Shown: positions 373 to 34,570 of the stretch, in pieces
Position numbering within the stretch: position 1 is the first letter of the stretch
Layout: each line of letters starts with the position of its first letter
DNA from: Aliihoeflea sp. 40Bstr573
GTDB taxonomy: Bacteria; Pseudomonadota; Alphaproteobacteria; Rhizobiales; Rhizobiaceae
Reading direction: 5' to 3'
DNA: 64,000 bases
Assembly: GCF_024105655.1 (NCBI RefSeq)
Contig: NZ_JAAAMH010000008.1
Span: forward strand, 1 to 64,000
Translations under genes and position numbers: made by a program
Notes under the pieces: model-generated
Database searches by the model: none
Told to the model about the DNA's origin: nothing
Seen by the model: only the letters and a program-made list of their open reading frames with translations

Positions 373-439
373 GCGGCGAGCGCCCGCTCCTCTCGTCAGT
401 CCCGCCTCACCACACAAGAAACTTATCCCCCTCCCTCAA

Positions 440-715
440 ACCCTCCCGCATAATTCCCCCGCTGTCCTCATGGGAACCGGATGCGCACCGGGTGTCTGGG
501 AGGATGGCGGAGACGTCCCCCTGCCGCTTCGGACCCGGCAGGCACGTGACGGCGCCGAGGTGGATGGGGCCCGCTTCATGCGGGTGCGGGAAAAGCCGCG
601 GGTGCTTCGTGCATCTCTGACCGTCCGAACAGGCGACAGACTCCGGACGGGCGGTCGAAAGATCGCACGCTACACACTTCAGATGAGCGATCCTTCGACC
701 GCCCGTCTTCCCGCT
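440..715. other. Hairpin-rich noncoding region, possible structured RNA
   Basis: No coding frame here looks real. The stretch holds several stems: CCTGCCG/CGGCAGG near 515, CCCGC/GCGGG near 576, GTCCG/CGGAC near 622-646, and a striking 21-bp inverted repeat, 646-666 against 687-707, with one mismatch and a 20-base loop. A boxA-like word (GCTCTTTGACA) follows at 713-723. It lies downstream of the small gene on the minus strand and upstream of nothing on the plus strand. It matches no RNA family that I can recall (not RNase P, tmRNA, SRP RNA or a riboswitch I know). Confidence 0.4.
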
Positions 716-3413: not shown

Positions 3414-4247
3414 TCATCGCCGGCGGCCATTGAGCGCCGCTTCGACGCTGCGCACGAGGTCGCGAATCGCCGGCCCGACCTCCTCGTGCATGAAGCGTTC
3501 GGTGAACTGGTAGGGCGGCCCGCCGCAGTTGAAGGCGTAGACGCCGGAACCGTCCGCAGCGACGAGCGGAGCGGCCACTGCGTGGATGCCCGGCCGCCAG
3601 GCACCGGCCGAAATCGCATAGCCGCGCTGCATGCAGGCGTCGATTTCGGCCCGCATTTCCCGCTCGAGCGCCGGCCAGCTTTCGCCGTAGCGCGGCGCGA
3701 GCGCTGCGATCGCGCGTTCGCGCTCGTCGGGCGGCATCACCGAGAGCAGCGCCCGGCCCATCGCCGACTGCGCAAGCGGTATGCCCGAGCCGATGTCGAG
3801 CTGGAACGTGATCGCTGCCGAGCCGCGCGAGATGTCGACGTAGAGCGCGCGGTTGCGGTCCCGGATCCCCAGCGCTACCGGCGCGGCGAGCCGTTCGGCG
3901 AGTTCGTCCATGTGCGCGCGCGCGATCTGCCGGATCCCCAGATTGGCCAGCGCCGAATAGCCGAGCGTGATCGCGGACGGCGCAAGCTGGTACTTTCCCG
4001 TTCGCGGCATCTTTGTCAGATAGCCGAGCGCGCAAAGCGTATAGGTCAGCCGCGTCACGGTGGGCTTGGGCAGCCCGGTCCGCTCGGCAATTTCCTGATT
4101 GCCGAGAAAACCGTCTCGCGGGCGGAAGGCACGCAGCACTTCGAGCCCGCGTGCGAGCGCGGTTACGAACTTGCGGTCGCCGCCATCCTCGGCATGCACA
4201 GCCTCTACCGCTGAATGCACGCCGTTCCCGTCGGTTGTGGTTGACAT
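3414..4247 (-). CDS. IclR-family transcriptional regulator
   Basis: The 277-residue product has an N-terminal winged helix (ARGLEVLRAF, then a helix-turn-helix with PKPTVTRL) and a C-terminal IclR effector domain (MGRALLSVMP, AIAAPL-type core). The ATG at 4247 follows GGAGGA; longer frames upstream have no binding site. The gene diverges from a TRAP transporter operon and a perfect palindrome at 4278-4300 lies between them, so it most likely controls that operon in response to the transported acid or its breakdown product. The effector cannot be read from the sequence. Confidence 0.9.
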   Translation of the reverse strand: MSTTTDGNGVHSAVEAVHAEDGGDRKFVTALARGLEVLRAFRPRDGFLGNQEIAERTGLPKPTVTRLTYTLCALGYLTKMPRTGKYQLAPSAITLGYSALANLGIRQIARAHMDELAERLAAPVALGIRDRNRALYVDISRGSAAITFQLDIGSGIPLAQSAMGRALLSVMPPDERERAIAALAPRYGESWPALEREMRAEIDACMQRGYAISAGAWRPGIHAVAAPLVAADGSGVYAFNCGGPPYQFTERFMHEEVGPAIRDLVRSVEAALNGRRR

Positions 4248-20948: not shown

Positions 20949-22166
20949 ATGAAAATCACCGACGTCAAGACATGGGTCGTTGGCAACCCGCCGCCGCAGG
21001 CCGGCGGGCGTTATTTCATCTTCGTGCGACTGACCACGGATGGCGGCGTCAAAGGCTACGGCGAAGCCTACAGCGCCACCTTCGGCCCTCACCTTACCGC
21101 GAAGATGATCGAGGATGTTGCCGAGCGCTATCTCGTCGGCACCGACCCGCACTACATCGAGAATTTTTTCCGCCGCGCCTATTCGTCGGGCTTCTCTCAG
21201 CGCCCCGACATCTCGATGATGGGCTGCGTCTCAGCGCTGGAGATGGCCTGCTGGGACATTGTCGGCAAGGAGGCGGACAAGCCGGTCTACAAGCTTCTTG
21301 GCGGCCAGGTTCACGAGCGCCTGCGCACCTACACCTATCTCTATCCGCAGACCGGCAGCGTCTATCCGAACGAAGCCGACAACGCCGATCGCAATGTCTA
21401 TAACGACCCCGACCTCGCCGCCGAGTGCGCGCTTGCCTATGTCGATCAGGGCTTCAATGCCGTAAAGCTTGACCCCGCCGGCCCTTATACCGCCTTTGAC
21501 GGCCACCAGCCGCGCCTTGTCGACATCGACCTGTCCGCGCGCATGGTCAAGGCGATCCGCGAGGCGGTTGGCACCCGTGCAGATATCCTGTTCGGCACGC
21601 ACGGCCAGTTTACCGCGTCGGGTGCGCGGCGCATGGCCAGGGCGATCGAGCCCTACGACCCGCTCTGGTTCGAGGAGCCCGTCCCGCCCGACATGCCCGA
21701 GGTCATGGCCGAAGTCGCCCGCGCAACATCGATCCCCATCGCGACCGGCGAGCGCCTGACGACCAAATGGGAATTCGCGCGCATCATCGAGCAGCGCGCC
21801 GCCTCGATCCTCCAGCCTGATCTGGGCCGCTCCGGCGGCATCCTGGAGACAAAGAAGATCGCGGCGATGGCCGAGGCGTATCATATCCAGGTCGCTCCGC
21901 ACTGTTATTGCGGTCCGATCGTCGGCGCCGCCAACATCCAGCTCGCGGCAACCCTGCCCAATTTCCTGATCCTGGAATCGATCAGGACCTGGGATGGATT
22001 TCATGGAGACCTTCTGACCAGAAAAATCGACTGGGAGGATGGCTGGGTCATTCCGTCAAAGGAACCAGGCCTCGGCGTGGAACTCAACGAGGCAGTTGCC
22101 GAAGCGCACCCATGGAATGGAGATGCCTTGCATCTGGCTATGGAGCCGCGACCACTCTTCCCATAA
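20949..22166 (+). CDS. Mandelate racemase/enolase superfamily enzyme, likely sugar-acid dehydratase
   Basis: The 405-residue protein has the N-terminal capping domain and the barrel with AVKLDPAGP (171-179), WFEEPVPP (240-247, metal ligand glutamate) and ATGERL (265-270, second glutamate), plus a histidine in APHCYCGP. The expected first metal aspartate is G216 in the sequence FGTHGQ, where galactonate dehydratases have a D-x-H pattern; His218 is kept. I infer a dehydratase or cycloisomerase on a sugar acid. It lies 48 bases after the GMC gene and is probably in its operon. Confidence 0.82.
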   Translation: MKITDVKTWVVGNPPPQAGGRYFIFVRLTTDGGVKGYGEAYSATFGPHLTAKMIEDVAERYLVGTDPHYIENFFRRAYSSGFSQRPDISMMGCVSALEMACWDIVGKEADKPVYKLLGGQVHERLRTYTYLYPQTGSVYPNEADNADRNVYNDPDLAAECALAYVDQGFNAVKLDPAGPYTAFDGHQPRLVDIDLSARMVKAIREAVGTRADILFGTHGQFTASGARRMARAIEPYDPLWFEEPVPPDMPEVMAEVARATSIPIATGERLTTKWEFARIIEQRAASILQPDLGRSGGILETKKIAAMAEAYHIQVAPHCYCGPIVGAANIQLAATLPNFLILESIRTWDGFHGDLLTRKIDWEDGWVIPSKEPGLGVELNEAVAEAHPWNGDALHLAMEPRPLFP

Positions 22167-22462
22167 AGGCAACGATTTCAGCGCCTTGGACGAATTTTCG
22201 GACCCAGGGCGATGCGCCGTTCCACGACCGGATCGCCGTTACAGAAAAACGTGATTCGCTAAAATACGACCGCCGTGCAAATTTCCCTTGGGTCAAGGGG
22301 TGCCGCCTTTCGCTCGCGCAATCATTTCATTGCGGCGGGAAGAGTGATGGCCGGCGCCTCTTTTCTTTCGAATGCTCGCAGTACCATCAATCATGGCCAG
22401 CGTCAGATCTGGCCGAGCCTGGAATGCGTGGCTGCATTCCGGCGAGAATACGGGAGGCCACG
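22167..22462. other. Intergenic stretch, no feature recognised
   Basis: About 300 bases between the dehydratase-like gene and a small gene. Short frames occur but have no binding site or codon pattern that supports them. I see no convincing hairpin or RNA. It probably contains the promoter of the following small gene. Confidence 0.5.
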
Positions 22463-22675
22463 ATGGCTCTAACTGCTTTGCGGGCCCGCTCTGGGCACTT
22501 GGAAATACAGGACGACAACCGGTTGCGTGATGCGATCGATGCGGTATTCGAAGAACTGGGGCTATCTGAAAAAGAGCCCCTGCGCCGTGCGGCGGTCGAA
22601 GCCAAGATGCGCGACGCCTACCGGCGCGGACCCCGCCACAACCTCAACTTGGTCGATGCCGGCCTGAGAGCCTAG
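22463..22675 (+). CDS. Small hypothetical protein, 70 residues
   Basis: An ATG at 22463 follows a strong GGGAGG with 5-base spacing. The 70-residue product is charged, mostly helical and soluble, with DNRLRDAIDAVFEELGLSE and a basic C-terminus. I do not recognise a family. Its stop overlaps the end of the convergent transglycosylase gene by three to four bases. The strong binding site supports a real gene. Confidence 0.6.
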   Translation: MALTALRARSGHLEIQDDNRLRDAIDAVFEELGLSEKEPLRRAAVEAKMRDAYRRGPRHNLNLVDAGLRA

Positions 22676-23247
22676 CAGCCCTGCAACTGGCCGGCATACT
22701 GGTTCGCCATCGAGGTCGCTCGCTGCGCCGCGCGCTGAACGCCGGAATTGCCGCGCCATGAGCCGCGGGCATAGCCCGCATGTCCCGAATAATAGGCGAG
22801 ATAGAGATTGTAGGCGTCGGTCTTGGCGATGCCGTTCGTCCGGTTGCTGGTGTTATGATACCAACCGACGAAGTGAATGGCGTCGCCGAAATTGGTTCGC
22901 CGCGCCGCAAACCGTCCCGTTTCGCGCTGATACCGCTCCCATGTCCCGTCCAGCGCCTGCGAATAGCCATACGCCGTCGATTGCCGCTTCCACGGAATGA
23001 CGCCGAAAAGCTTCGTGCGCGGTGGACGCGCGCGGGGCTCGAAGTTCGATTCCGTATAAATCGTCGCCATCAATATCGGGACGGGAACGCCGAACTCGCG
23101 CTCCACGCGCTGCGCGTCGCGCCGCCAGTTCTCGAAGAAGCCGCTTCGCTGCGCGAAGATCGAGCATGAATTGGTGGTGTTGCTGGGAGCCGAGGCGCAG
23201 GCCGACAGGCCCAGCGCCACGAGAACGGCGACAAACACGATACGCAT
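22672..23247 (-). CDS. Lytic transglycosylase-type lipoprotein
   Basis: The 191-residue protein has a lipoprotein signal (LGLSAC, acylated cysteine at residue 17) and a lysozyme-like SLT domain with the catalytic glutamate in ATIYTESNFEPRARP and AYGYSQALDGTW. It should cleave peptidoglycan glycan strands from the outer membrane inner face. A second short lytic transglycosylase is at 39355. It is conserved in Rhizobiales as far as I recall. Confidence 0.85.
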   Translation of the reverse strand: MRIVFVAVLVALGLSACASAPSNTTNSCSIFAQRSGFFENWRRDAQRVEREFGVPVPILMATIYTESNFEPRARPPRTKLFGVIPWKRQSTAYGYSQALDGTWERYQRETGRFAARRTNFGDAIHFVGWYHNTSNRTNGIAKTDAYNLYLAYYSGHAGYARGSWRGNSGVQRAAQRATSMANQYAGQLQGC

Positions 23248-23314
23248 CGCAAATCCTCTCGTCTTGAGAGAATTGCTAAAGAGTAAATCTTAACAGACGG
23301 TTTTGATTCAGCTT

Positions 23315-23935
23315 CTAGCCAATGCCCGGATACGTTTCGCCCTTCAAAAGACGCGCCAGATGCGCCGCATTCGACGCTGCCATGCCGAGCGTTTCCTTCA
23401 CCGACTTCGGGATCTGGTCGAGGTCCTTGTAATCGACAGAGCCCATCGCCTCGCCGACCCAATAGCATCCCGCATTGGCCGGCACGGTAAAGCCGACATC
23501 GTTCAGCGCCTGGAAGCAGGCGGCATGGCAGTGATGCGCACCATCCTCGTTGCCCACGACGGCGACCAGCGCCACCTTGCCGGCGGCCGGCATCCGGCCC
23601 TTGTCGTCCGCCTCGCCCAAAAACGCATCCAGCCGCTCCAGCACCCGCTTGGCGACCGAGGACGGCTGGCCCATCCAGATCGGTGTGCCCAGGATGAAGA
23701 TGTCGGCGGCAATGATCTGCTCGCGGATCGCCGGCCACCCGTCCCCCTCGCCCATGTCGCTTTCGACGCCCGGCTTGATGTCGTGGTCGAGCGCCCGGAC
23801 GATCTCGCCGGTCACGTCATGGGGTTCGAACGCGTCGAGCAGGTCCGCAAGCATCTTGTCGGTGGAGGATGTTTCGGCGGCGCTTGAAGGTTTGAGCGAA
23901 CAGTTCAGCGCGAAGGCGGTGAGTTTGGCGGCCAT
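23315..23935 (-). CDS. Flavodoxin-fold NAD(P)H-dependent oxidoreductase
   Basis: The 206-residue protein shows the fold of FMN-dependent reductases: ALNCSLKPSSAAETSSTDKM as phosphate loop, ILGTPIWMGQPSS as the second flavin contact, and VGNEDGAHHC. The reaction is probably reduction of quinones or similar acceptors. It is transcribed on the minus strand and ends 67 bases before the transglycosylase start. The substrate is not known. Confidence 0.85.
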   Translation of the reverse strand: MAAKLTAFALNCSLKPSSAAETSSTDKMLADLLDAFEPHDVTGEIVRALDHDIKPGVESDMGEGDGWPAIREQIIAADIFILGTPIWMGQPSSVAKRVLERLDAFLGEADDKGRMPAAGKVALVAVVGNEDGAHHCHAACFQALNDVGFTVPANAGCYWVGEAMGSVDYKDLDQIPKSVKETLGMAASNAAHLARLLKGETYPGIG

Positions 23936-23992
23936 GGGGTTCCCTTTCGCGAAATCCTTGGTGGCCGAACGCAGCTCTTTGCCGGAAGTTTC

Positions 23993-24208
23993 CTAGTTGC
24001 GGCCGATCATGTCCATGCACCGTCGCATCGAAAAGTGCTGCACGTGGTGCGAGGTCCCGAGCAGGATGGTTAGCTGCTCATATCCCGCGCACCGCGCAGC
24101 CGTCTCCGCTGCCCGCGCGATGTCGATCGGGCGCATGACGGATGTGGTCAGCACGAGAGCGGCGAGCATGGAAAGCACGAGCGCGGAGGGTATCGAAGGG
24201 GATTTCAT
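23993..24208 (-). CDS. Small exported protein, 71 residues, unknown
   Basis: The product begins MKSPSIPSALVLSMLAALVL, a signal peptide with likely cleavage near IARAAE (about residue 34), and has two cysteines that could pair in the remaining 37 residues. There is no good binding site before ATG 24208. I do not recognise a family. The signal peptide supports coding. Confidence 0.45.
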   Translation of the reverse strand: MKSPSIPSALVLSMLAALVLTTSVMRPIDIARAAETAARCAGYEQLTILLGTSHHVQHFSMRRCMDMIGRN

Positions 24209-24364
24209 GAATCAGCAGTCCGTCGTCTGGCGGGCAATCTAGGACGGCAGAACGGTCTGCTCCATGGGTGGTTCGATCACATCTCTGTCTTGGGCACTCG
24301 TGGTTAACGGCGGAACCGGATGGTTTGTCATGCATTGCCGGGGGACACGAAGAGGGGTCCAGGA

Positions 24365-25156
24365 ATGCATCAGGCAAAAGCATGGTTTCGGCCATTCGCA
24401 CGCATCGGGTATGCGGCGCGGGGGCTGATCTACACGGTGATCGGCTTCTTCGCCGCGACCGCCGCGATCGGGTCTGGCGAGACGATGGGCTCGCGCGACG
24501 CGCTCGACAGGCTGCTGCAAAGCGGCTTCGGCATCGCCCTCGCCTACGTCCTCGTCGTCGGTCTTGCCTGCTACGCACTGTGGCGAACGATCCAGGCCGT
24601 GTTCGACACCGACAACCATGGAACGGACGCCAAGGGCATAGCGGTCAGGGGTGGACTGATGGCTTCCGCCATCGCCTATTCCACGCTCGCATTATACACG
24701 GCCTCGCGCATCCGGGGGACAAGTTCGCAGGGCGAATCCGGAGGCAGCATTGCCGACACGATCGCCGGTTTCGTTGGAACGGGCGTCGTCTCCACCGTCA
24801 TCGCCGCATGCCTGGCGGGGGCCGCCATCGCCCATGTCGTCAAGGCGGTGCGGGAAAAATATGCCGATCACATCCAGGCGGATGCGGCGAAGATGAAGGT
24901 GATCCACCCGATCGCCAAGACGGGGCTGATCGCCCGCGGCACAGTGTTCGCGATCCTCGCCTTCCTCGTCGCGCTTCAGGCCTGGCGCGGCAACGGAACG
25001 GGCGAGGATGTGGGTTCGGAACAGGCGCTCGAATTCGTCCAGTCCCTGCCCGCCGGAAGCTGGCTGCTCGCGGCGATGGGCGTCGGCCTTCTCGCCTTCG
25101 CCGCCTATTCCTTCACGCAGGCGCTCTACCGCCGCATCAATGTGGAAGATGCCTGA
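24365..25156 (+). CDS. DUF1206 membrane protein
   Basis: The 263-residue protein has six membrane segments arranged as three repeated pairs. Each repeat opens with a motif such as ARIGYAARGLIYTVIGFFA, AVRGGLMASAIAYSTLALY or AKTGLIARGTVFAILAFLV, which is the pattern of DUF1206. The function of this family is unknown. ATG at 24365 follows AGGGGTCCAGGA; a frame opening at 24320 adds residues that do not fit. It is convergent with the exporter gene. Confidence 0.85.
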   Translation: MHQAKAWFRPFARIGYAARGLIYTVIGFFAATAAIGSGETMGSRDALDRLLQSGFGIALAYVLVVGLACYALWRTIQAVFDTDNHGTDAKGIAVRGGLMASAIAYSTLALYTASRIRGTSSQGESGGSIADTIAGFVGTGVVSTVIAACLAGAAIAHVVKAVREKYADHIQADAAKMKVIHPIAKTGLIARGTVFAILAFLVALQAWRGNGTGEDVGSEQALEFVQSLPAGSWLLAAMGVGLLAFAAYSFTQALYRRINVEDA

Positions 25157-25162
25157 CCTGCA

Positions 25163-26071
25163 TCATGCCTCCGACGGCCTCGGCTGCGCCAGGCTGCGCT
25201 CGCGAAACAGGATGTAGAGCCCGGCGGCCATGGTGATGGCGATGCCGATGGCGGCGAGGCCGTTGGGCAGGTCGACGAAGATCAGCCAGCCGATCAAGGT
25301 GGCGAAGGGGATTTCCAGATACTGCACCGGCGCGACGGTGGCCGACGGCGCAAAGCGCAGCGACCACGTCATCAAGAGGTGCCCGCAGGTGCCCAGAACG
25401 CCGATGCCGAGAAGCAGCCAGGTCTCGGTCGCGTTCGGCGTGACGATGCCGAAGAACGAATCCGTCCGCCCCCATGTCAGCGCGAGGATCAGCACCAGCA
25501 CCGGCGTGCCGATGAAGCCGGAAACGGTCTGCAGCGCCAGCGGGTCGCATGCCTTGGCGATCTGCCGCGAGACCAGCATGTAGAAGGCGAAGGTGAAGGC
25601 GACGACGATCGGCAGGAAGGCCGGCCAGCCGACCTCGGCGAAGCTCGGCTGCACCACGAGCAGCGTGCCGATGAACCCGACCGCGCAGGCGGCGATGCGG
25701 CGCGGGCCCACCTCCTCGCCGAGGATCGTCGCCCCCAGCACCAGCATGATGAACGGCATGACGAAGGCGATGGCGACGGCGTCGGCCAGCGGCAGATAGC
25801 GCAGCGAGGTGAACATCGCGCCGATGCCGATGATGTGGAGCGCGGTGCGCAGGAAGGTCATGCGCAGCACATAGGGGCTCATCTTGAGCGAGATGCCGGT
25901 GGCGAAGATGATCGGCAGCAAGATGACGGCCTGAACGGCGAAGCGGACGGCCAGAAGCTGCACAAGCGGGATCGCGTCGCCGAGAATTTTCGCCGTCGCA
26001 TCGCCGAGCGGCGCGATGGCGCAAAAGCCGATCATCAGGAGGATGCCGAGCATCGGCCGATCCTGGGTCAT
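25163..26071 (-). CDS. EamA-family (DMT superfamily) transporter
   Basis: The 302-residue protein has ten membrane segments in two EamA halves, with conserved LRYLPLADAVAIAFVMPF and VAPVQYLEIPFATLIGWLIF. It is an inner membrane exporter, perhaps of metabolites or amino acids; the substrate cannot be read. The start is ATG 26071 after CAAGGT. It follows a small hypothetical gene by 13 bases on the same strand, so the two may form an operon. Confidence 0.9.
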   Translation of the reverse strand: MTQDRPMLGILLMIGFCAIAPLGDATAKILGDAIPLVQLLAVRFAVQAVILLPIIFATGISLKMSPYVLRMTFLRTALHIIGIGAMFTSLRYLPLADAVAIAFVMPFIMLVLGATILGEEVGPRRIAACAVGFIGTLLVVQPSFAEVGWPAFLPIVVAFTFAFYMLVSRQIAKACDPLALQTVSGFIGTPVLVLILALTWGRTDSFFGIVTPNATETWLLLGIGVLGTCGHLLMTWSLRFAPSATVAPVQYLEIPFATLIGWLIFVDLPNGLAAIGIAITMAAGLYILFRERSLAQPRPSEA

Positions 26072-26084
26072 GAATTACCTTGGG

Positions 26085-26516
26085 TCATCCCTTCCGCTTA
26101 GCGGCACGCCTTCCCCGCGACAATGGCGCAGCAGCCGTTTCGGGACCGGACCACCGCGCGAGCGCCGCCGCATCGCGCCCGGCGCGGGCGCATTGCGCAC
26201 GCCAGGCGATCAGGATGCCGAGGGCCATGGCCTGAAAGTCGCGCTCCGTCGCCGCGTCGAACTGCCCGCCGCAGGCAGCGCCCGCTTCGATGTCGCCCGC
26301 GCGGCAGGAACCTGCCCGCCGGCAAGTCGCGCGCGGGCAAAAATGCGGCAGGCCGGCCATGCCGGATTTGAGCCGGAACGCGGTGAGGATTTCGGCCTCG
26401 GGATAGGGCGGCGCGGCGACGAGCGCGCCGATCCCCTCGCGCAGCACGCCGACATGGCGGGCGATGCGGACCTCGCGCGGCTCCCAGCTTTTCGGATCGT
26501 AAGGCTCGTCCTGCAT
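26085..26516 (-). CDS. Hypothetical protein with cysteine cluster
   Basis: A 143-residue soluble protein; ATG at 26516 follows GAGGAGACAGACC. The middle carries FCPRATCRRAGSC and a later CGGQ, a cluster of cysteines with arginines that could bind a metal. The C-terminus is basic (RRAAKRKG). I recall similar short proteins in rhizobia without known function. The gene precedes the EamA exporter on the same strand. Confidence 0.65.
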   Translation of the reverse strand: MQDEPYDPKSWEPREVRIARHVGVLREGIGALVAAPPYPEAEILTAFRLKSGMAGLPHFCPRATCRRAGSCRAGDIEAGAACGGQFDAATERDFQAMALGILIAWRAQCARAGRDAAALARWSGPETAAAPLSRGRRAAKRKG

Positions 26517-27019
26517 GGTCTGTCTCCTCGGCTGGATTTCGGGCGTGCGAAAGCGGCCGCGCCCGTTTGCCGGGAGCGGGATGGGTCGGGAAACGGGCGG
26601 CCGTCCGGTTCGCCAGTTTGTTTTTGGTATTGCGACCCGAACGGCCGTCCGTCGGTGGCTGTCACGCTCTCGGCCGGTCACAGACGATCCTTTTAGGGAC
26701 GCCCGCGGCTTTTCCCGCATGGCTTGGGGTTGCGCTGACGCGCGCGCCTCACCACGCCGGCCTGTTCCGTGCCTTCACGAGCCTTCGGCGAACCACGCCT
26801 CCGGGGGAAGTCACCGCCGCCCTCCCAAAACCCGGTTCCGGCTCCGGTTCCCGCAAGGGCGATGGAGGGATGATAAGGGAGGTGGCGGGGGTGGGGATAA
26901 GTTTTTGTCGTGGAGGCTTATGGCGAACCAGACAATCGTTAAGCTGAATGCTGCATTGCTCAATCGTTACGCTCAAATCTCTACCGGACCGATGACGATA
27001 TAGCCCACGCCAAGCGAAT
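26517..27019. other. Intergenic stretch at the left edge of an AT-rich segment
   Basis: About 500 bases. The left part is GC-rich without a supported gene and holds the promoter of the minus-strand gene at 26085. From about 26900 base composition turns AT-richer. A 27-codon frame (26920-27003, plus strand) follows GGAGG and reads MANQTIVKLNAALLNRYAQI onward; it converges on the hydrolase gene and may be a real micro-gene or chance. Confidence 0.4.
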
Positions 27020-28594
27020 TCAGTTTCTTATGCGCCAATACTCGATGCCCTGCAAAGATACCGGTTCGACTGCGTGTCGATCTTCGGGCGCAGCGTTGGA
27101 CTTAAGCAAACTGAAAATATCTCCCAACACCGATCGATTTGCCCCAATGTACCCGTGACCGAACTCACCCAATGACATATCGTTAACGAGGATCGTATCC
27201 ATCCCACTAATTACGAAAGTTGGCGGCATCACTCCTACTCGGTGATATCCATGTAACCAACCGGATAGCGAAAGCGCCTTGTCTTGGTCCGATATGTATG
27301 ACGTTGTTCGTCGCGAATACTTTAGGGCAGCAACGCTCAAATTCGGCATTATAGAAGAATCTACGTCTGCTGCCGCAAGTATGACTTGATCAACAGATTT
27401 CAGCACCTTTTTGTGGCCATTGGACAGCAATTCCAATGCACCAAGCGTTACACGGCAACCCATACTGTGCGATATAATATTGACACTTTTCTGCTCCGAC
27501 CTCTCTACAAATTGCTGTATAAATCTTGCTAAATCATACTTACTTGCCTCGGCGGAAGCCTCATCAGCACTGTACGCTGGAATGCTACCTTTAGAAGGCC
27601 AACTGAACAGGCCAATTCCCTGGCCCAACCCAAGATCGTAGCCAATCTGGGCGGCACGCAAGACCGCGTCTTTGAAACTGGTGTTAAAGCCATGGACAAA
27701 TATAGTTGGCTTTTCTCGAATTTTCATTCGCAGTGAGGTTTGCCTCATTAAATCCCAGAACAGATCGTTGTTCAACGAAATTAATCCAACGATCTTAATT
27801 CTATCATCTTGCTTATTGAAAAGCCTCCTCCACAACGGAGAACCCAGCGAACCGACCCTATGGCCTTCGGGAACGATTACTTCGCAAACACCATAATTTA
27901 AACTAGAATTCTTGCTTGAATCGAAGTCGACTAGCGAGCCTCTTTCAAAAACCGGGCATCTGTTAGTGCCGAAGAATACATCGTATCTGTTTTTGCGTTT
28001 CCGCCGATCTAATTCATCCCCTAGGCGGCCACTTCCCGCCTTCTCGCTTCGATCTGCCAAGAAATTGGTCCCACCGTCGCCAGCCTCTTGATACTGCTGA
28101 TATGCAGACTGCGTTGGAAAAATGCGCTCGGGCTTGGCAGATGCTTCGCGGATTTGCGCCAACGACACGTTGCTCGCGATAATTATAGAGCGGCCAATGT
28201 CGGCATCCTTGAGAGAAACATCACTAAAGTCCGCATTAGTGAAAACTGATACTGCAAATGATGATCTAGATGCGTTTGCGCCTAGCAAATTCGCATTCAA
28301 AAATATTGCGCCGTCAAAATTCGATTTCGACATATTTGCGTTAAGCAAAATCGCACCCGAGAAATCAGCCTTGGAGAAATTTAGAGTCGATAGATCAGAA
28401 CCCGTTAGATTCGCGTCAGATAGATTTATGCGCTCGAAGTATCGCGAAGTCTTTGGTGCATCCCGAAAGTCCGGCGGCAGGAAATCAAAAAATCGGATCC
28501 CAGATAAGTCGGGAGAAAATTCTACTTTTCTGCGCCGTTGATTCCACCTTTCGACACCCTCCTTTAGCCAGCTTACATGCCATTGATCTGCCAT
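27020..28594 (-). CDS. Pentapeptide-repeat protein fused to a DUF900 alpha/beta hydrolase
   Basis: The 524-residue protein joins two modules. Residues about 55-135 are pentapeptide repeats (INLSDANLTGSDLSTLNFS and further A(D/N)LxG-type units), forming a right-handed quadrilateral helix. Residues about 295-500 are a DUF900 esterase/lipase-like domain with HGFNTSF (301-307), LFSWPSKGS (329-337), nucleophile elbow SHSMG (S377) and FGHGYIG near the C-terminus as likely catalytic histidine. There is no signal peptide. The gene is clearly AT-richer than its neighbours and uses codons they avoid, so it was probably acquired by transfer. A role in defence, toxicity or lipid hydrolysis is possible but not shown. 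Confidence 0.85.
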   Translation of the reverse strand: MADQWHVSWLKEGVERWNQRRRKVEFSPDLSGIRFFDFLPPDFRDAPKTSRYFERINLSDANLTGSDLSTLNFSKADFSGAILLNANMSKSNFDGAIFLNANLLGANASRSSFAVSVFTNADFSDVSLKDADIGRSIIIASNVSLAQIREASAKPERIFPTQSAYQQYQEAGDGGTNFLADRSEKAGSGRLGDELDRRKRKNRYDVFFGTNRCPVFERGSLVDFDSSKNSSLNYGVCEVIVPEGHRVGSLGSPLWRRLFNKQDDRIKIVGLISLNNDLFWDLMRQTSLRMKIREKPTIFVHGFNTSFKDAVLRAAQIGYDLGLGQGIGLFSWPSKGSIPAYSADEASAEASKYDLARFIQQFVERSEQKSVNIISHSMGCRVTLGALELLSNGHKKVLKSVDQVILAAADVDSSIMPNLSVAALKYSRRTTSYISDQDKALSLSGWLHGYHRVGVMPPTFVISGMDTILVNDMSLGEFGHGYIGANRSVLGDIFSLLKSNAAPEDRHAVEPVSLQGIEYWRIRN

Positions 28595-28741
28595 CGGGTC
28601 CCTGCAACCTTTCAGTCTGGTGTCGTTAGTGGAGGTTCATGATTTTTGACCCGCAAGTCAACTGGACCCCAATCTGAAGCACAGGGTGCCACGGCGAGGA
28701 GGGGCGACCATCGGCTTTTGACGAACGCAAGCAGAAACGGC

Positions 28742-28985
28742 GAGGCATGGATCCTCGGGTCAAGCCCGAGGATGACGAGGTGGAGGGCGCGCAGACTTTG
28801 CCGGTTAGCGGCGGCCCTCCTCCCCTTCGTCATCCTCGGGCGGAGCAGGCGCGGAGCGGCTGCGCAGACCCGGGGATCCATGCCTCTGCGTTTGTGATGG
28901 GCGGGCGGGTGACGAATGGGCCTGCGCCGGAGTGCCGGCGGTGATGGCGAGGCATGGATCCTCGGGCCAAGCCCGAGGATGACGA
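28742..28985. repeat. Cluster of three palindromic repeats (ATCCTCGGG family)
   Basis: Three copies of the same family as at 207-372: ATCCTCGGG/CCCGAGGAT at 28751-28773 (loop TCAAG), ATCCTCGGG/CCCGGGGAT at 28832-28877 (28-base loop), and ATCCTCGGG/CCCGAGGAT at 28958-28980 (loop CCAAG). They fill the 500-base gap between the hydrolase gene and queF. No gene is supported here. Confidence 0.85.
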
Positions 28986-29102
28986 TGTGGAGGGGGACGG
29001 GCCCGTAGGTCCGGCAGCGTACCCACCTTTACCTCGCCGCCCTTCCCTGCTATCCGCGCGCCTTTCGCAATTCCGGTCGCAGCCTACCCGGTCAAAACAA
29101 GG

Positions 29103-29579
29103 ATGAAGCGCTTGGCGCATGACACGATCTATTCGAACCTGACGCAGCTCGGCGCGGACGCCGCCATACCAGTCCGGCCGGAGGATGCCGTATTGGAGCG
29201 CGTTGCGAACCCGCAGGCCGGCACGCGCTATACGGTGCGCTTTACCGCGCCCGAATTCACCTCGCTCTGCCCGATGACCGGCCAGCCGGATTTCGCGCAT
29301 CTGGTGATCGACTACATTCCCGGCGACTGGCTGGTGGAGAGCAAGTCGCTGAAGCTGTTCCTGTTTTCCTTCCGCAACCATGGCGCCTTCCACGAGGACT
29401 GCACGGTGACGATCGGCAAGCGGCTGGTCGAGCTTCTGGAGCCTCAATGGCTGCGGATCGGCGGCTACTGGTATCCGCGCGGGGGCATTCCGATCGACGT
29501 CTTCTACCAGACGGGCGCGGCGCCGGCGGATGTGTGGGTGCCCGAACAGGGCGTGCCGACCTATCGCGGGCGCGGATAG
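29103..29579 (+). CDS. queF: NADPH-dependent 7-cyano-7-deazaguanine reductase
   Basis: The 158-residue enzyme is a single-domain (type I) QueF. It has the nucleophile Cys56 and Asp63 in [12 protein letters not shown] and the NADPH motif [12 protein letters not shown] (79-90), followed by [10 protein letters not shown]. It reduces preQ0 to preQ1 in queuosine synthesis for tRNA wobble modification. ATG at 29103 has AAGG immediately upstream, closer than usual. Confidence 0.95.
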
Positions 29580-29683
29580 GTTTCCGGGCGAAGCACCGAG
29601 CGGGACCGAAAACCGGTTTCCAACTTTCGCTTCGGTGCGCGAAACCTCTGGCGGCGCGCGGCGCGGCTTGGCATAAGGCGGCC

Positions 29684-30649
29684 ATGACCGATATTTCCCG
29701 CATCCGCGCCGCAGCTTCGCGCCTGGAGGGCAAGGCCCGCCGGACGCCGCTTCTCAACTCGCAATTCCTCGACGAGATCGCCGGACGGCGCGTCTTCGTG
29801 AAGCCGGAATGCCTGCAGCATACGGGCTCGTTCAAGTTTCGCGGCGGCTGGTCGGCGGTTTCAGTGATCGAGCCGGCGGTGCGCGCGCGCGGCGTGATCG
29901 CGTTTTCTTCCGGCAACCACGCACAGGGCGTGGCGCTGGCGGCGAAGATGCACGGCGTGCCGGCCGTGATCATCATGCCGTCCGACGCGCCGAAGATGAA
30001 GATCGACAACACCCGCGCCTATGGCGCCGAAGTGGTGCTCTACGACCGCGCCAGGGAGGATCGCGACGCGATCGGCGAGCGGCTGGCCGGCGAGCGGGGG
30101 CTGACGCTGATCCGCCCCTTCGACGAGCCGGAGGTGATCGCCGGACAGGGCACGGTGGGGCTGGAGATCGCCGCGCAGGCGGCTGAACTGGGCGTTGCGC
30201 CCGGCGAGGTTCTGGTGCCGTGCGGCGGCGGCGGGCTGACCTCGGGCATCGCGCTGGCGCTCGCCGCCGAGGCGCCGGGGTTCACCGTGCGCACCTGCGA
30301 GCCCGAAGGCTTCGACGACGCGGCGCGCTCGCTGGAAGCGGGCGAGATCCGCTCGAACGCGGCGGACGGCACGTCGATCTGCGACGCCATCGTGACGCCG
30401 CAGCCGGGCCGGCTGACCTTTCCGGTGATGAAGGAACTGTGCGGCGCGGGCATCGCGGTGTCCGAAAGCGACGTGCGCCGCGCCATGGCGCTGGCCTTCA
30501 CGCGGCTGAAGATCGTGGTGGAGCCCGGCGGCGCGGTGGCGCTGGCGGCCGCGCTTTTCCACGGGCAGGCAATTTCGGGCGGCGACCTGGTGGTGGTCGC
30601 CTCGGGCGGAAACGTCGATCCGGAGCTGTTCGCCTCGGTCCTCGCCTGA
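29684..30649 (+). CDS. Threonine/serine dehydratase (PLP fold type II)
   Basis: The 321-residue protein has the pyridoxal lysine in HTGSFKFRGG, the SSGNHAQGVALAAK loop and the phosphate-binding PCGGGGLTSG. There is no ACT regulatory domain, so it is the short, catabolic type that deaminates threonine or serine to a 2-oxo acid; serine racemase or 3-hydroxyaspartate ammonia-lyase activity is also possible. ATG at 29684 follows AAGGCGG. It is convergent with the GGDEF gene, with their stops adjacent. Confidence 0.88.
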   Translation: MTDISRIRAAASRLEGKARRTPLLNSQFLDEIAGRRVFVKPECLQHTGSFKFRGGWSAVSVIEPAVRARGVIAFSSGNHAQGVALAAKMHGVPAVIIMPSDAPKMKIDNTRAYGAEVVLYDRAREDRDAIGERLAGERGLTLIRPFDEPEVIAGQGTVGLEIAAQAAELGVAPGEVLVPCGGGGLTSGIALALAAEAPGFTVRTCEPEGFDDAARSLEAGEIRSNAADGTSICDAIVTPQPGRLTFPVMKELCGAGIAVSESDVRRAMALAFTRLKIVVEPGGAVALAAALFHGQAISGGDLVVVASGGNVDPELFASVLA

Positions 30650-31645
30650 TCAGGCGGCGCGGCTGTCGCGCTGGGGCGCGGCTTCGCCCTTGAAGATGCG
30701 GAACGTGCCCCGCCCGGCGGACTTGGCCGCATAAAGCGCGGTGTCGGCGTTGACGAAGAGGTCGGACGGCGGGACGCCCGCGCCGAGCGCGATGCCGACC
30801 GACGCGCCGAGCGCGTGGCTGCGCCCGTCGAGCACGAACGGCTCGGCCATCGCGGCGGTGATCGCGCGGGCGAGCTCGGCGATCGTCTCCAGATTGGCGC
30901 CGGCACCGACAAGCACCGCGAATTCGTCGCCGCCGACGCGCGCGACCAGATCGGCGGACGCGCACGCTCCCGACAGCCGCGCGGCGGTCTCGCGCAGGCA
31001 CGCGTCGCCCGCCAGGTGGCCGTGATCGTCATTGACCTGCTTGAAGCCGTCGAGATCGACCAGCAGGAGCGCGCTGAGCGCGCCCGCCTCCGCCATTTCG
31101 GAAAGCTTCTCCTGGAACTGCGCGCGGTTCGGCAGGCCGGTCATCTCGTCGAAGGCAGCGAGATAGCGCAGCCGGTCGATGGCGCGCTTTTCGGCCGTGA
31201 TGTCCTGCTTCATGCCGAAGATGCGCACGGGAACGCCCGCCTCGCACTCGACCTGCGCGGTGATGCGCATGAACTTTTGCACGCCCTTCGCGGTGACGAT
31301 CTCGGCGTCGAAGGTGAAGGAGGAACGCTCCGCGATGGCGCGGCTGCGCCGGCGCTCCATCTCGGCGCGGGATTCGGGCGTATAGAGCGCGAGCGACGCC
31401 TCGCGCGTCGGCATCGAGCCGCGCGGCAGGTCGAAGATGTCGTAGACGACATCGGTCCAGCGCAGCGAATTGTCGGCCAGCTCGCATTCCCACACGCCGA
31501 TCTGCGCCGCCTCGGACGCGCGGGCGAAGATCTTGCGGAAATGGGCGAGTTCGCGGGCCTGTTCGGCGATCAGCGCCTCCTGCGCGGCCAGGCGCCGGCG
31601 CAGGACGTCCGCTTCGTCGATTTCGCCCGACAGGTATTCGTGCAC
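30650..31645 (-). CDS. PAS-GGDEF diguanylate cyclase
   Basis: The 331-residue cytoplasmic protein has an N-terminal coiled coil (about 10-40), a PAS/PAC sensor domain (about 42-155, with GMKQDITAEKRA) and a GGDEF domain (about 160-320). The active site GGDEF is intact at 238-242, as are DEMTGLPNR and DLDGFKQVND, so it should make cyclic di-GMP. The inhibitory RxxD site before GGDEF is absent (SAD in its place). No membrane segment is seen. Confidence 0.9.
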   Translation of the reverse strand: MHEYLSGEIDEADVLRRRLAAQEALIAEQARELAHFRKIFARASEAAQIGVWECELADNSLRWTDVVYDIFDLPRGSMPTREASLALYTPESRAEMERRRSRAIAERSSFTFDAEIVTAKGVQKFMRITAQVECEAGVPVRIFGMKQDITAEKRAIDRLRYLAAFDEMTGLPNRAQFQEKLSEMAEAGALSALLLVDLDGFKQVNDDHGHLAGDACLRETAARLSGACASADLVARVGGDEFAVLVGAGANLETIAELARAITAAMAEPFVLDGRSHALGASVGIALGAGVPPSDLFVNADTALYAAKSAGRGTFRIFKGEAAPQRDSRAA

Positions 31646-31705
31646 TGCTCGTCGCCCCCGATATCGCGGGAGAGCCTAACGGCGGAGGATTAAGGATTCC
31701 TGATA

Positions 31706-34570
31706 TTACCGTCCCGGACGGCCCGTCTTGCCCGGCCGCCGCTTCTGCTTGCGCTGGTCGGCCGGGTCCTCGTAGGAGCCGATGCCGGCGCGCTCGCGCT
31801 TGACCGGTTTCGCGTCGTCGACGGGCTTTGCCGGAATGCGGCCCTCGACCGGCTTTTCGGTGCGCCGCACGGTCATCTCGTCGAGCGAGTTCTTGCGAAA
31901 CAGCGACGCGCCGGCCGGCTGGGCATGATCGCCCGAGGTGCCCATTTCGTCGAGGTCGGGCTTGCGGAAGAGGCTCTGCCCGTCCTCGCCGACCGTGCGG
32001 TGGCGCGCCTTGCCCTTGTTGTGCTTGCCCTTCTCGCGGCCCGAGACCGGGCTTTCCATCTCGACGTCGCGCGCGAGCGGATCGTCGGAGATGGCGAGTT
32101 CCATCTCGCGCAGGCGCTTGATCTCGTCGCGAAGGCGCGCGGCGCGCTCGAAGTCGAGGTCGGCCGCGGCGTCGCGCATCTCCTTTTGCAGATGTTCCAG
32201 ATGCGCCTTCATGTTGGCGCCGACCATCTGGCCGTCCTTCGTGACGGACGAGATGTCGGGGCGGACATGGTCGCGCTCGTAGACCGAGGACAGGATGTCG
32301 CCGATGTTCTTCTTGATGCTTTCCGGCGTGATGCCGTGCTCTTCATTGTAGGCGAGCTGCTTCTCCCGGCGGCGGCTGGTCTCCGCCATCGCGCGTTCCA
32401 TCGAGCCGGTGATGTGGTCGGCGTAGAGAACCACCTTGCCGTCGACGTTACGCGCCGCGCGGCCGATCGTCTGGATCAGCGAGGTTTCCGAGCGCAGGAA
32501 GCCCTCCTTGTCGGCATCGAGAATGGCGACGAAGCCGCATTCGGGAATGTCGAGACCCTCGCGCAGGAGGTTGATGCCGACCAGCACGTCGAACGCGCCG
32601 AGGCGCAAATCGCGCAGAATTTCAATACGTTCGAGGGTATCGATGTCGGAGTGCATGTAGCGCACGCGGATGCCCTGCTCGTGCAGATATTCGGTCAGGT
32701 CCTCGGCCATGCGCTTGGTCAGGACCGTGCAGAGCGTGCGGTAGCCCTTCGCGGTCGTGTCGCGGATTTCGCCCAGAACGTCGTCGACCTGGCTCTTGGC
32801 CGGGCGCACCTCGACGGGTGGATCGATCAGCCCCGTCGGGCGGATGACCTGCTCGGCGAAGACGCCGCCGGACTGTTCCATCTCCCAGCCGCCGGGCGTG
32901 GCCGATACCGCAACGGTGAGCGGGCGCATCGCGTCCCACTCCTCGAAGCGCAGCGGACGGTTGTCCATGCAGGACGGCAGGCGGAAGCCGTATTCGGCCA
33001 GTGTCGCCTTGCGGCGAAAGTCGCCCCGGTACATGGCGCCGATCTGCGGCACGGTGACGTGGCTTTCGTCAATGAAGACGAGTGCATTGTCGGGAATGTA
33101 CTCGAACAGGGTCGGTGGCGGCTCGCCGGGCGCGCGGCCGGTGAGATAGCGCGAATAGTTCTCGATGCCCGCGCAGGAGCCGGTGGCTTCCAGCATTTCG
33201 AGATCGAAGCGGGTGCGCTGCTCCAGGCGCTGGGCTTCCAGAAGGCGCCCGGCCCTTTCAAGTTCGGCAAGGCGCAACTGAAGCTCGGCCTTGATCGACT
33301 TGGTGGCCTGGTTGAGCGTCGGGCGCGGGGTAACGTAGTGCGAATTGGCGTAGATCTTGACCGACTTGAGGTCCCCGGTCTTCTGGCCGGTGAGCGGGTC
33401 GAACTCGACGATGGTCTCGATCTCGTCGCCGAACATCGATATGCGCCAGGCCCGATCCTCAAGGTGCGCGGGGAAGATTTCGATCGTATCGCCGCGCACG
33501 CGGAACGACCCGCGCACGAAGTTGATGTCCTGCCGCTTGTATTGCTGCGCGACGAGATCGGCGAGAAGCTGGCGCTGGTCGAGCCGGTCGCCGACGCTCA
33601 TCTGGAACGTCATCGCCGTATAGGTCTCGACCGAGCCGATACCGTAGATACAGGACACGGAGGCGACGATGATGACGTCGTCGCGCTCCAGCAGCGAGCG
33701 CGTTGCCGAGTGGCGCATCCGGTCGATCTGCTCGTTGATCGAGGATTCCTTCTCGATGAAGGTGTCGGTGCGCGGAACGTAGGCCTCTGGCTGGTAGTAA
33801 TCGTAGTAGGAAACGAAATACTCGACGGCATTGTTCGGGAAGAACGACTTGAACTCGCCGTAGAGCTGCGCGGCGAGCGTCTTGTTCGGCGCGAGGATCA
33901 GCGCCGGGCGCTGCGTTTCCTCGATCACCTTGGCCATGGTGAACGTCTTGCCCGAACCGGTGACGCCGAGCAGCACCTGCGTCCGGTCCTCCTCGGCGAC
34001 ACCGGAAACGAGATCGCGGATGGCCGTCGGCTGGTCGCCCGACGGCTTGAACTCGGTTTCCATCTTGATGGAAATGCCGCCTTCGGACTTTTCCGGGCGC
34101 GCGGGACGGTGCGGAGTCCAGATCTGCCCGTTCTTGTGCAGCGGATTGCCACTCTCGATCAGCGCCGACAGCGCCGCGACCGTCGCGGTGACGCCCGACG
34201 ACGACAGCGAGGACGCGTCTTCCAGGCTGATGTCGAGCCCGGCGACGGGATTGAGGCCGGCGGCTGCGCGCTCCTTTGGCGAAGCCGCGCCGCCCATCGA
34301 CGTGCCGCGGCCAGACCGCGTCGGCTCGGACGAGCGCTCTGGAATCTTCCTGGGTGACTTCGCCGGTCTTGCCGCGTCGGACGGCTTGCGCGGCGGCGCA
34401 ACCTTCTGCGCCTCTTCCGAAATCTGTCGCGCCCAGTCGGCGACGCCGCCGGTCAGCGGCGCGCCTTCGAACTCAGCCTGCGGCGCTTCGCCGAACCCGT
34501 CCAGCGGTTCGGACGCGTCCATGAAGTCGGTCAGCGGGCTACGCCGCGCGGTCTTAGGGGATTTGGCCAT
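31706..34570 (-). CDS. uvrB: Excinuclease ABC subunit B, long form
   Basis: The 954-residue protein contains the whole UvrB helicase-like core from about residue 173 ([11 protein letters not shown], Walker A GVTGSGKT, beta-hairpin [26 protein letters not shown]) and the C-terminal UVR motif ([16 protein letters not shown]). It loads at DNA lesions with UvrA and recruits UvrC. A low-complexity N-terminal extension of about 170 residues and a basic tail of about 110 residues make it far longer than E. coli UvrB; long forms are usual in Rhizobiales. Minus-strand start ATG 34570. Confidence 0.96.

What the first reader, a model, noticed from the sequence alone, without database searches (positions are those of the whole stretch)
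26900..28620. AT-rich accessory gene: pentapeptide repeats fused to a DUF900 hydrolase
This segment differs in base composition from everything around it and codes for a fusion of a pentapeptide-repeat helix with an alpha/beta hydrolase with intact SHSMG elbow. The right side is a cluster of palindromic repeats, a usual landing place for foreign DNA. Fusions of a targeting or DNA-mimic module with a lipase/esterase could form an effector, toxin or phage defence protein. No partner or immunity gene was seen.
Basis: partly seen in the sequence, partly recalled or inferred. Interest (0 to 1): 0.6.

Follow-up and report, generated by a model that had tools for sequence, protein, structure and literature searches.

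The report
Mobile pentapeptide-lipase fusion, probable phage defence
A foreign, AT-rich bacterial gene joins a pentapeptide-repeat helix to a lipase-like enzyme, and it sits at a genome site that related species fill with other genes, some of them known anti-virus genes, so it is probably an untested one-gene virus defence.

Summary
Window 27020-28594 (minus) encodes 524 aa: a conserved N-terminal cap (1-55), pentapeptide beta-helix (56-144), variable linker, and DUF900 alpha/beta hydrolase (201-524) with S377/D438/H480 conserved. GC is 0.469 against 0.645 around it. The hydrolase model (pLDDT 89) matches lipases. Five more full-length relatives were found, rare and scattered; in 60 other genomes near the window's genome no listed match spans both domains. 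New result: the gene is cargo at a variable site (26907-29021). In the 3 congeners that keep the site it holds an RT-Toprim (retron-type), a methylase-Mrr fusion, and an HSDR_N protein (plus a second ORF). Relatives sit at two other variable sites: directly upstream of rplB in Ruegeria (TIR-TM in one congener, mostly uncharacterised genes in others) and an XRE-LdtR gap in Pseudosulfitobacter (AbiU in one congener, no insert in another). The cap also occurs with other C-terminal parts (FRG; channel-like). Most likely a one-gene anti-phage effector that attacks lipid or another ester when triggered. Location and predicted fold are shown; trigger, substrate and defence activity are inferred. It matches no PADLOC model, and the paper searches made found nothing on it.

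The parts
26560..26906 (+). Left boundary block: dispersed repeat that ends in GGTGGCGGGGGTGGGGATAAGTTTTT; nearly identical in G001, G002, G004 up to base 26906, after which the genomes differ
26907..29021 (.). Variable segment (cargo), replaced by other genes in three congeners
27020..28594 (-). Pentapeptide-repeat/DUF900 hydrolase fusion, 524 aa
28430..28594 (-). N-terminal cap, residues 1-55 (WLKEGVExWNxRRKK...PPDFRDAPKTSRYFE); mean pairwise identity 72% over 5 members
28163..28429 (-). Pentapeptide-repeat beta-helix, residues 56-144
27023..27994 (-). DUF900 alpha/beta hydrolase domain, residues 201-524, lipase-like predicted fold (model covers 202-524)
27464..27466 (-). Codon of S377, nucleophile in SHSMG (role inferred)
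   Evidence: invariant in 14 of 14
27281..27283 (-). Codon of D438, proposed acid (role inferred)
   Evidence: invariant in 14 of 14
27155..27157 (-). Codon of H480, proposed base (role inferred)
   Evidence: present in all 13 rows that reach it (1 of 14 stops short)
28739..28994 (.). REP-like palindromic repeats inside the variable segment; similar repeats in G002 and G004, not seen in the aligned part of G001
29022..29102 (+). Conserved right flank begins (CCCRCCTTTACCTCGCCGCCC)

Best explanation
A horizontally moving, single-gene anti-phage effector. The N-terminal cap and pentapeptide helix form the sensing or holding module, and the C-terminal lipase-like serine hydrolase is the killing module. 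In an uninfected cell the hydrolase is held inactive or away from its substrate. A phage-induced change felt by the cap/helix releases it, and it cleaves an ester substrate, most likely membrane lipid, stopping the infected cell. Shown: domain make-up, conserved Ser/Asp/His columns, predicted lipase fold, foreign composition, replacement by defence-type genes at one site, presence of relatives at two more variable sites. Inferred: defence activity, autoinhibition, trigger, lipid substrate.
For: (1) Same site, different cargo: in all 3 congeners that keep both flanks (of 4 compared), the segment between the same edges holds another main gene. G001: RT-Toprim_I-C (PADLOC 2e-205). G004: N6/N4 methylase with Mrr_cat (PADLOC MTase 6.8e-64; Pfam 6.8e-7). 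G002: HSDR_N-type protein (Pfam 4.2e-9; PADLOC only weak, 3e-5), plus a second ORF of 143 aa. (2) Ruegeria rplB site: relative L025 there; 8 of 8 congeners have non-aligning sequence upstream of a conserved block before rplB, including TIR-TM (1.4e-61), an M78 peptidase (capP 4.6e-23), a GHKL ATPase and DUF2971. (3) Pseudosulfitobacter: relative L023; AbiU next to the same XRE gene in G887 (3.5e-187); no insert in G886. (4) GC of the gene is low in the own locus and in L022, L023, L025 (0.43-0.52 against 0.56-0.69 around). (5) S377, D438, H480 conserved; hydrolase model pLDDT 88.9, top VIA rows lipases and PHB depolymerases (best Z 15.1), hornet phospholipase A1 Z 14.1, Tle3 Z 13.1. (6) The cap profile also matches proteins with FRG (L031; PADLOC candidate PDC-S15 1e-61) and channel-like C-termini, as expected of a module with exchangeable effectors. 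(7) No signal peptide by eye, unlike DUF900 relatives L003, L004, L007, L008, also judged by eye.
Against: No PADLOC model matches P0001 or L029. No functional data. Among 9 proteins scanned from the 8 Ruegeria congeners, 1 match is strong and family-specific, 1 is to a common peptidase domain, 3 are weak and 4 have none. In Pseudosulfitobacter only 1 of 4 congeners with the marker gene has a known defence gene, and there LdtR was not reached in the stretch read. L024 sits in a broadly low-GC region. Foldseek TM-scores to lipases are modest (0.41-0.51 for the best rows), and a lipase fold does not prove lipid hydrolysis. The linker varies and the full-length model is poor (pLDDT 53.8), so no domain contact is shown. 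No empty form of the window's own site was seen in the congeners. No count of cargo at control gaps was made, so enrichment is not tested statistically.
Confidence: 0.62

Rival explanations
1. An accessory esterase or lipase for metabolism or surface lipids, carried as ordinary cargo; the pentapeptide helix only places it in the cell.
For: DUF900 relatives read from the order (11 loci, L003-L013) look by eye mostly like exported or membrane-anchored hydrolases; hydrolase fold.
Against: No export signal seen by eye; cap the most conserved zone; defence-type genes at the same or like sites in congeners.
Confidence: 0.17
2. A toxin used against other bacteria (for example a T6SS-type lipase effector) or the toxin of an addiction pair.
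For: Weak Tle3 sequence match (8.2e-5, 22.7 bits, below the 27-bit cut-off) and Tle3 among structural matches (Z 13.1).
Against: Below the Tle3 cut-off; in the variable segment the only other ORFs of 80 aa or more are antisense to the gene or in the repeats, so no immunity gene is apparent.
Confidence: 0.1
3. A Qnr/MfpA-like DNA mimic that protects topoisomerases.
For: Pentapeptide helix.
Against: Far below curated cut-offs (Qnr 19.5 of 240 bits, MfpA 15.2 of 360); only mild negative charge; most of the protein is a hydrolase.
Confidence: 0.03
4. The pentapeptide part binds a nucleotide or DNA signal, as in HalA (effector of the Hailong system; system name recalled, not from a call), with a signal-making enzyme elsewhere in the genome.
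For: A weak profile match to HalA with oligodeoxyadenylate (9nyi, E 0.069, residues 52-199); channel-like relatives of the cap.
Against: The match is at chance level and rests on the repeats; no HalA row for L030 or L034; no partner gene recognised at the sites read.
Confidence: 0.08

Closest known systems
DUF900 family (PF05990)
   Same: Hydrolase domain is a clear member (1.7e-38), Ser/Asp/His kept
   Different: The 11 order members read (L003-L013) have, by eye, mostly signal or membrane N-termini; here a cytosolic-looking cap and pentapeptide helix
RT-Toprim_I-C, TIR-TM and AbiU single-gene defence systems (PADLOC names)
   Same: Found at the same or equivalent sites in congeners
   Different: Unrelated domains; these are in PADLOC, this one is not
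Cap-pentapeptide-FRG protein (L031, PADLOC PDC-S15 candidate)
   Same: Same type of cap and helix
   Different: FRG domain in place of the hydrolase
T6SS lipase effector Tle3
   Same: Lipase-like fold (Z 13.1)
   Different: Below family cut-off; no immunity gene apparent
Hotspots of antiviral systems in phages and satellites (PMC9122126; search listing with start of abstract only)
   Same: One locus, exchangeable antiviral genes
   Different: Here chromosomal; no phage or satellite genes recognised by eye in the flanking ORFs read

Membership tests
DUF900 (PF05990) | HMM score above gathering cut-off | tested here: met
   132.8 bits against 20.5
DUF900 (PF05990) | Ser-Asp-His triad in an alpha/beta hydrolase fold (triad assignment inferred from conservation) | tested here: met
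   S377, D438, H480 conserved; model pLDDT 88.9 matching lipases
Pentapeptide repeat (PF00805) | Repeat HMM above cut-off and beta-helix | tested here: met
   53.8 bits against 20.2; regular short strands with block pLDDT mostly 76-90, pentapeptide structures on top
Single-gene anti-phage defence | Lies at a site where related genomes carry other defence-type genes | tested here: met
   Window site: 3 of 3 usable congeners (of 4), 1 strong named PADLOC system and 2 restriction/modification-type genes; two further sites with 1 strong match each
Single-gene anti-phage defence | Protects cells against phage | not testable with these tools
   needs plaque assays
Single-gene anti-phage defence | Match to a known PADLOC model | tested here: not met
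   0 families at E up to 1
Qnr/MfpA gyrase protectors | Equivalog score above cut-off | tested here: not met
   19.5 of 240 and 15.2 of 360 bits
T6SS Tle3 effector (PF24322) | Score above cut-off | tested here: not met
   22.7 of 27 bits
Hailong HalA (system name recalled) | Sequence relation to HalA over the sensing part | tested here: inconclusive
   E 0.069 over residues 52-199, mainly repeats

The most novel reading that the evidence does not exclude
The cap plus pentapeptide helix is a shared switch of a modular, one-gene defence superfamily whose killing part is exchanged (lipase-like DUF900, FRG, channel-like membrane module), and these genes travel as solitary cargo into fixed chromosomal sites, including the S10 ribosomal-protein operon beside rplB, apparently without an integrase of their own.
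Probability: 0.4. Interest if true: 0.78.

Novelty: new variant of a known kind. Interest (0 to 1): 0.6.

Why it matters
If right, it adds a lipase-type effector joined to a pentapeptide sensor to the single-gene anti-phage repertoire, suggests a function for part of the uncharacterised DUF900 family, and gives a modular sensor (cap plus helix) whose trigger can be found by swapping domains. The sites themselves are a practical list: each congener's cargo is a candidate defence gene, several with no known domain, and the rplB site raises the question of how cargo is accepted inside an essential operon.

Tried and rejected
Rfam scan of 22000-33000 at E up to 1: no match, so the left block is no RNA family in that library at that threshold; its folding is no better than shuffles (z -0.39 and -0.45). 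No tRNA or tmRNA found in the window. Viral contigs: none of 40 pattern matches encodes a relative of the full protein. Phages: 12 records, matches confined to query residues 10-175. Plasmids: 467 records with a match, none covering 80% of the query (40 rows seen); the first 63 residues alone have no plasmid match. The first full-length structure was poor, so the hydrolase was predicted alone with 19 rows: 5 family members and 14 of the 16 viral-contig DUF900 relatives found. The HalA lead was not confirmed.

Papers: searches. DUF900 with pentapeptide gave 0 papers; DUF900 with hydrolase 3 (listing only); [quoted passage not shown]). That the fusion was not found in print rests on these searches of this open-access library alone. 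PMC9122126: listing only.

Considered: the dispersed repeat's end as a general landing point. Eight further copies were fetched, seven looked at. L073 (same genome): a kinase ORF starts 88 bp after the repeat end (Pkinase 1.8e-36; PADLOC mad6 7e-47, a generic kinase match). L075 and L076 (G004): lower-GC stretches on that side, with a 349-aa ORF without match about 1.3 kb off, and an M78 peptidase ORF about 0.8 kb off. L072 and L077: no low-GC stretch there. L078 and L079 (G863): ORFs read, no defence gene directly at the repeat end. L074 was not read. Left open. L028 (cap match 5.1e-5) showed no pentapeptide ORF of 150 aa or more and was dropped. L036, a second cap hit in G721, was not read. 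L014-L021 were not read; L110 and L111 were not used.

Full report
WHAT IS THERE. Window 27020-28594, minus strand, is one 524-aa ORF. Pfam finds DUF900 (1.7e-38) and pentapeptide repeats (1.3e-14). GC is 0.469 and GC3 0.476, against 0.645 (sd 0.026) in 120 half-overlapping 1-kb windows elsewhere: z -6.8. Names of neighbouring genes (EamA transporter, threonine dehydratase, uvrB, rplD/rplW/rplB, XRE, LdtR, aminotransferase, desaturase) are given by eye from the translations, not from a call.

THE FAMILY. Four full-length relatives came from named genomes: L022 (Rhizobiales AFS003181), L023 (Pseudosulfitobacter koreensis), L024 (Palleronia marisminoris), L025 (Ruegeria sediminis), 55-61% identical overall. 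The fusion is rare: in 61 genomes near the window's (own included), 46 have some match, but only the own genome's spans both domains. A 64-position cap profile matched 3 of 397 genomes of the order and 8 of 385 of the class, the own genome counted in both. Of the loci read (9 of 10 other than the own), only L029 carries the DUF900 fusion.

ANATOMY. Five members show four zones: cap 1-55 (mean pairwise identity 0.72), helix 56-144 (0.48), linker 145-200 (0.19), hydrolase 201-524 (0.63). The cap is more conserved than the enzyme, which suggests it touches something constant. In 14 aligned hydrolase domains S377 and D438 are invariant, and H480 is present in all 13 that reach it; the triad assignment is an inference from this. 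The hydrolase modelled alone with 19 rows has pLDDT 88.9 and pTM 0.91. Foldseek's best are lipases at E 2e-5 with modest TM scores (0.41-0.51). VIA, a second look at Foldseek's own list, gives Z 15.1 (168 residues, 2.5 A) to a rumen lipase, 14.1 to hornet phospholipase A1 and 13.1 to Tle3, with PHB depolymerases and other lipases between. The whole-protein model is poor (53.8) except for the helix.

THE SITE IN THE WINDOW. Four same-genus genomes were compared. In three (G001, G002, G004) the left neighbour (EamA transporter) and the right neighbour (threonine dehydratase) lie 3.5-3.9 kb apart, as in the window; in G003 they are on different contigs with other neighbours. The left flanks agree up to base 26906 and the right flanks from 29022; between them the four genomes differ, save for similar palindromic repeats in G000, G002 and G004. 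The main gene in each: G001, RT-Toprim_I-C reverse transcriptase (PADLOC 2e-205; retron-type by recall). G004, DNA methylase with an Mrr-type endonuclease domain (PADLOC 6.8e-64; Pfam 6.8e-7). G002, HSDR_N-type protein (Pfam 4.2e-9; PADLOC only 3e-5), with a second ORF of 143 aa nearer the right flank. No congener with an empty form of this site was seen.

THE SITE IN RUEGERIA. L025's gene lies between rplW and rplB of the S10 operon. Eight congeners, drawn evenly from a larger group, were compared: 8 of 8 share about 175 bp before rplB, and the sequence directly upstream of that does not align. Their cargo: G878 TIR-TM (1.4e-61); G881 M78 peptidase (capP 4.6e-23) with a 357-aa ORF without match; G883 GHKL ATPase (MzaB 9e-4, weak); G884 DUF2971 (PDC-S31 4e-3, weak); G879 coiled-coil protein (ZorA 1.6e-7, weak); G880, G882 and G877 proteins without PADLOC match. 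So of 9 proteins scanned, 1 PADLOC match is strong and specific, 1 is to a common peptidase domain, 3 are weak, 4 have none. In G877, G878 and G879 a fatty-acid desaturase gene lies further upstream, and in G883 a YceI-like ORF; rplW was not reached in all stretches, so the safe statement is 'directly upstream of rplB'.

THE SITE IN PSEUDOSULFITOBACTER. L023's gene lies between an XRE-type regulator and a MarR/LdtR-like regulator. Of 5 congeners, 4 have the marker aminotransferase at 96-97%. G887 has AbiU next to XRE (PADLOC 3.5e-187; Pfam AIPR 1.2e-42), LdtR not being reached in the 3.2 kb read. G886 has 355 bp between XRE and LdtR and no insert. G888 has an 870-bp gap with no ORF of 130 aa on the XRE strand (two on the other strand overlap it). 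G885 has a 166-aa ORF and its contig ends before LdtR.

COMPOSITION ELSEWHERE. GC over the gene against other 1.5-kb windows of the locus: L022 0.515 against 0.61-0.69; L023 0.435 against 0.58-0.67; L025 0.451 against 0.56-0.63; L024 0.511 in a generally low-GC region, about 2 kb from a tRNA-Ser and 1.4 kb from a resolvase-like ORF.

MODULARITY. The cap profile also matches proteins with other C-termini: L031 with FRG (Pfam 9.2e-12; PADLOC PDC-S15 1e-61); L030, L032, L034, L035 with a membrane end (Pfam run on L030 only: Ion_trans_2 4.2e-4, below cut-off); L027 and L033 with no other domain recognised (Pfam run on L027 only). This fits a switch with exchangeable killers, but cap matches apart from L027 and L029 are modest (1.7e-6 to 9.4e-5, E-values for one genome).

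HOW IT LIKELY WORKS. Single gene, no partner seen, conserved cap, serine hydrolase of lipase-like fold, at sites where congeners carry RT-Toprim, TIR-TM, AbiU and restriction-type genes: the economical reading is a one-gene defence in which the cap and helix sense infection and the hydrolase attacks membrane lipid or another ester. Location, predicted fold and conserved residues are shown; the rest is inference. Enrichment for defence genes was not tested against control gaps. How cargo moves is unknown; no integrase was seen among the ORFs of the window's segment.

KNOWN OR NEW. Both domains are known. The combination, as a candidate defence gene, matches no PADLOC model and was not met in the paper searches. 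It is filed as a new variant of a known kind.

Noticed in passing
L025 2247-4170 and L088-L095: The region just upstream of rplB in the S10 operon of Ruegeria is a variable site with different genes in the 9 genomes compared, including TIR-TM and several genes without known domains.
   Followed up: partly
window 26560-26906; L073 about 3635-3880: Dispersed repeat with a common right end (GGGGATAAGTTTTT). Another copy in the same genome is followed 88 bp on by a protein kinase ORF (Pkinase 1.8e-36; PADLOC mad6 7e-47, a generic kinase match), then an apparent IS end (by eye).
   Followed up: partly
window 414-553: A diverged copy of the same repeat near the start of the contig, next to palindromic repeats.
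   Followed up: no
L030, L032, L034, L035: Proteins with the same kind of cap, many pentapeptide repeats and a channel-like membrane end; no PADLOC match for the two scanned (L030, L034).
   Followed up: partly
L031 319-1815: Cap-pentapeptide-FRG protein that matches the PADLOC candidate family PDC-S15 (1e-61).
   Followed up: partly
L022 226-5714: The closest relative lies next to uvrB (by eye); the window's gene is about 3 kb from uvrB too, but in another orientation and with three ORFs between.
   Followed up: no
L024 6788-7603: ORF beside the Palleronia relative with a repeated IDPxRN motif and no Pfam match above cut-off.
   Followed up: partly
L002 (G000 contig C38): A second DUF900 hydrolase (30% identical) of the same genome on a 6-kb contig.
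   Followed up: no
L025 6881-7531: A 216-aa ORF on the opposite strand further along the ribosomal-protein operon of Ruegeria sediminis, no Pfam or PADLOC match.
   Followed up: partly
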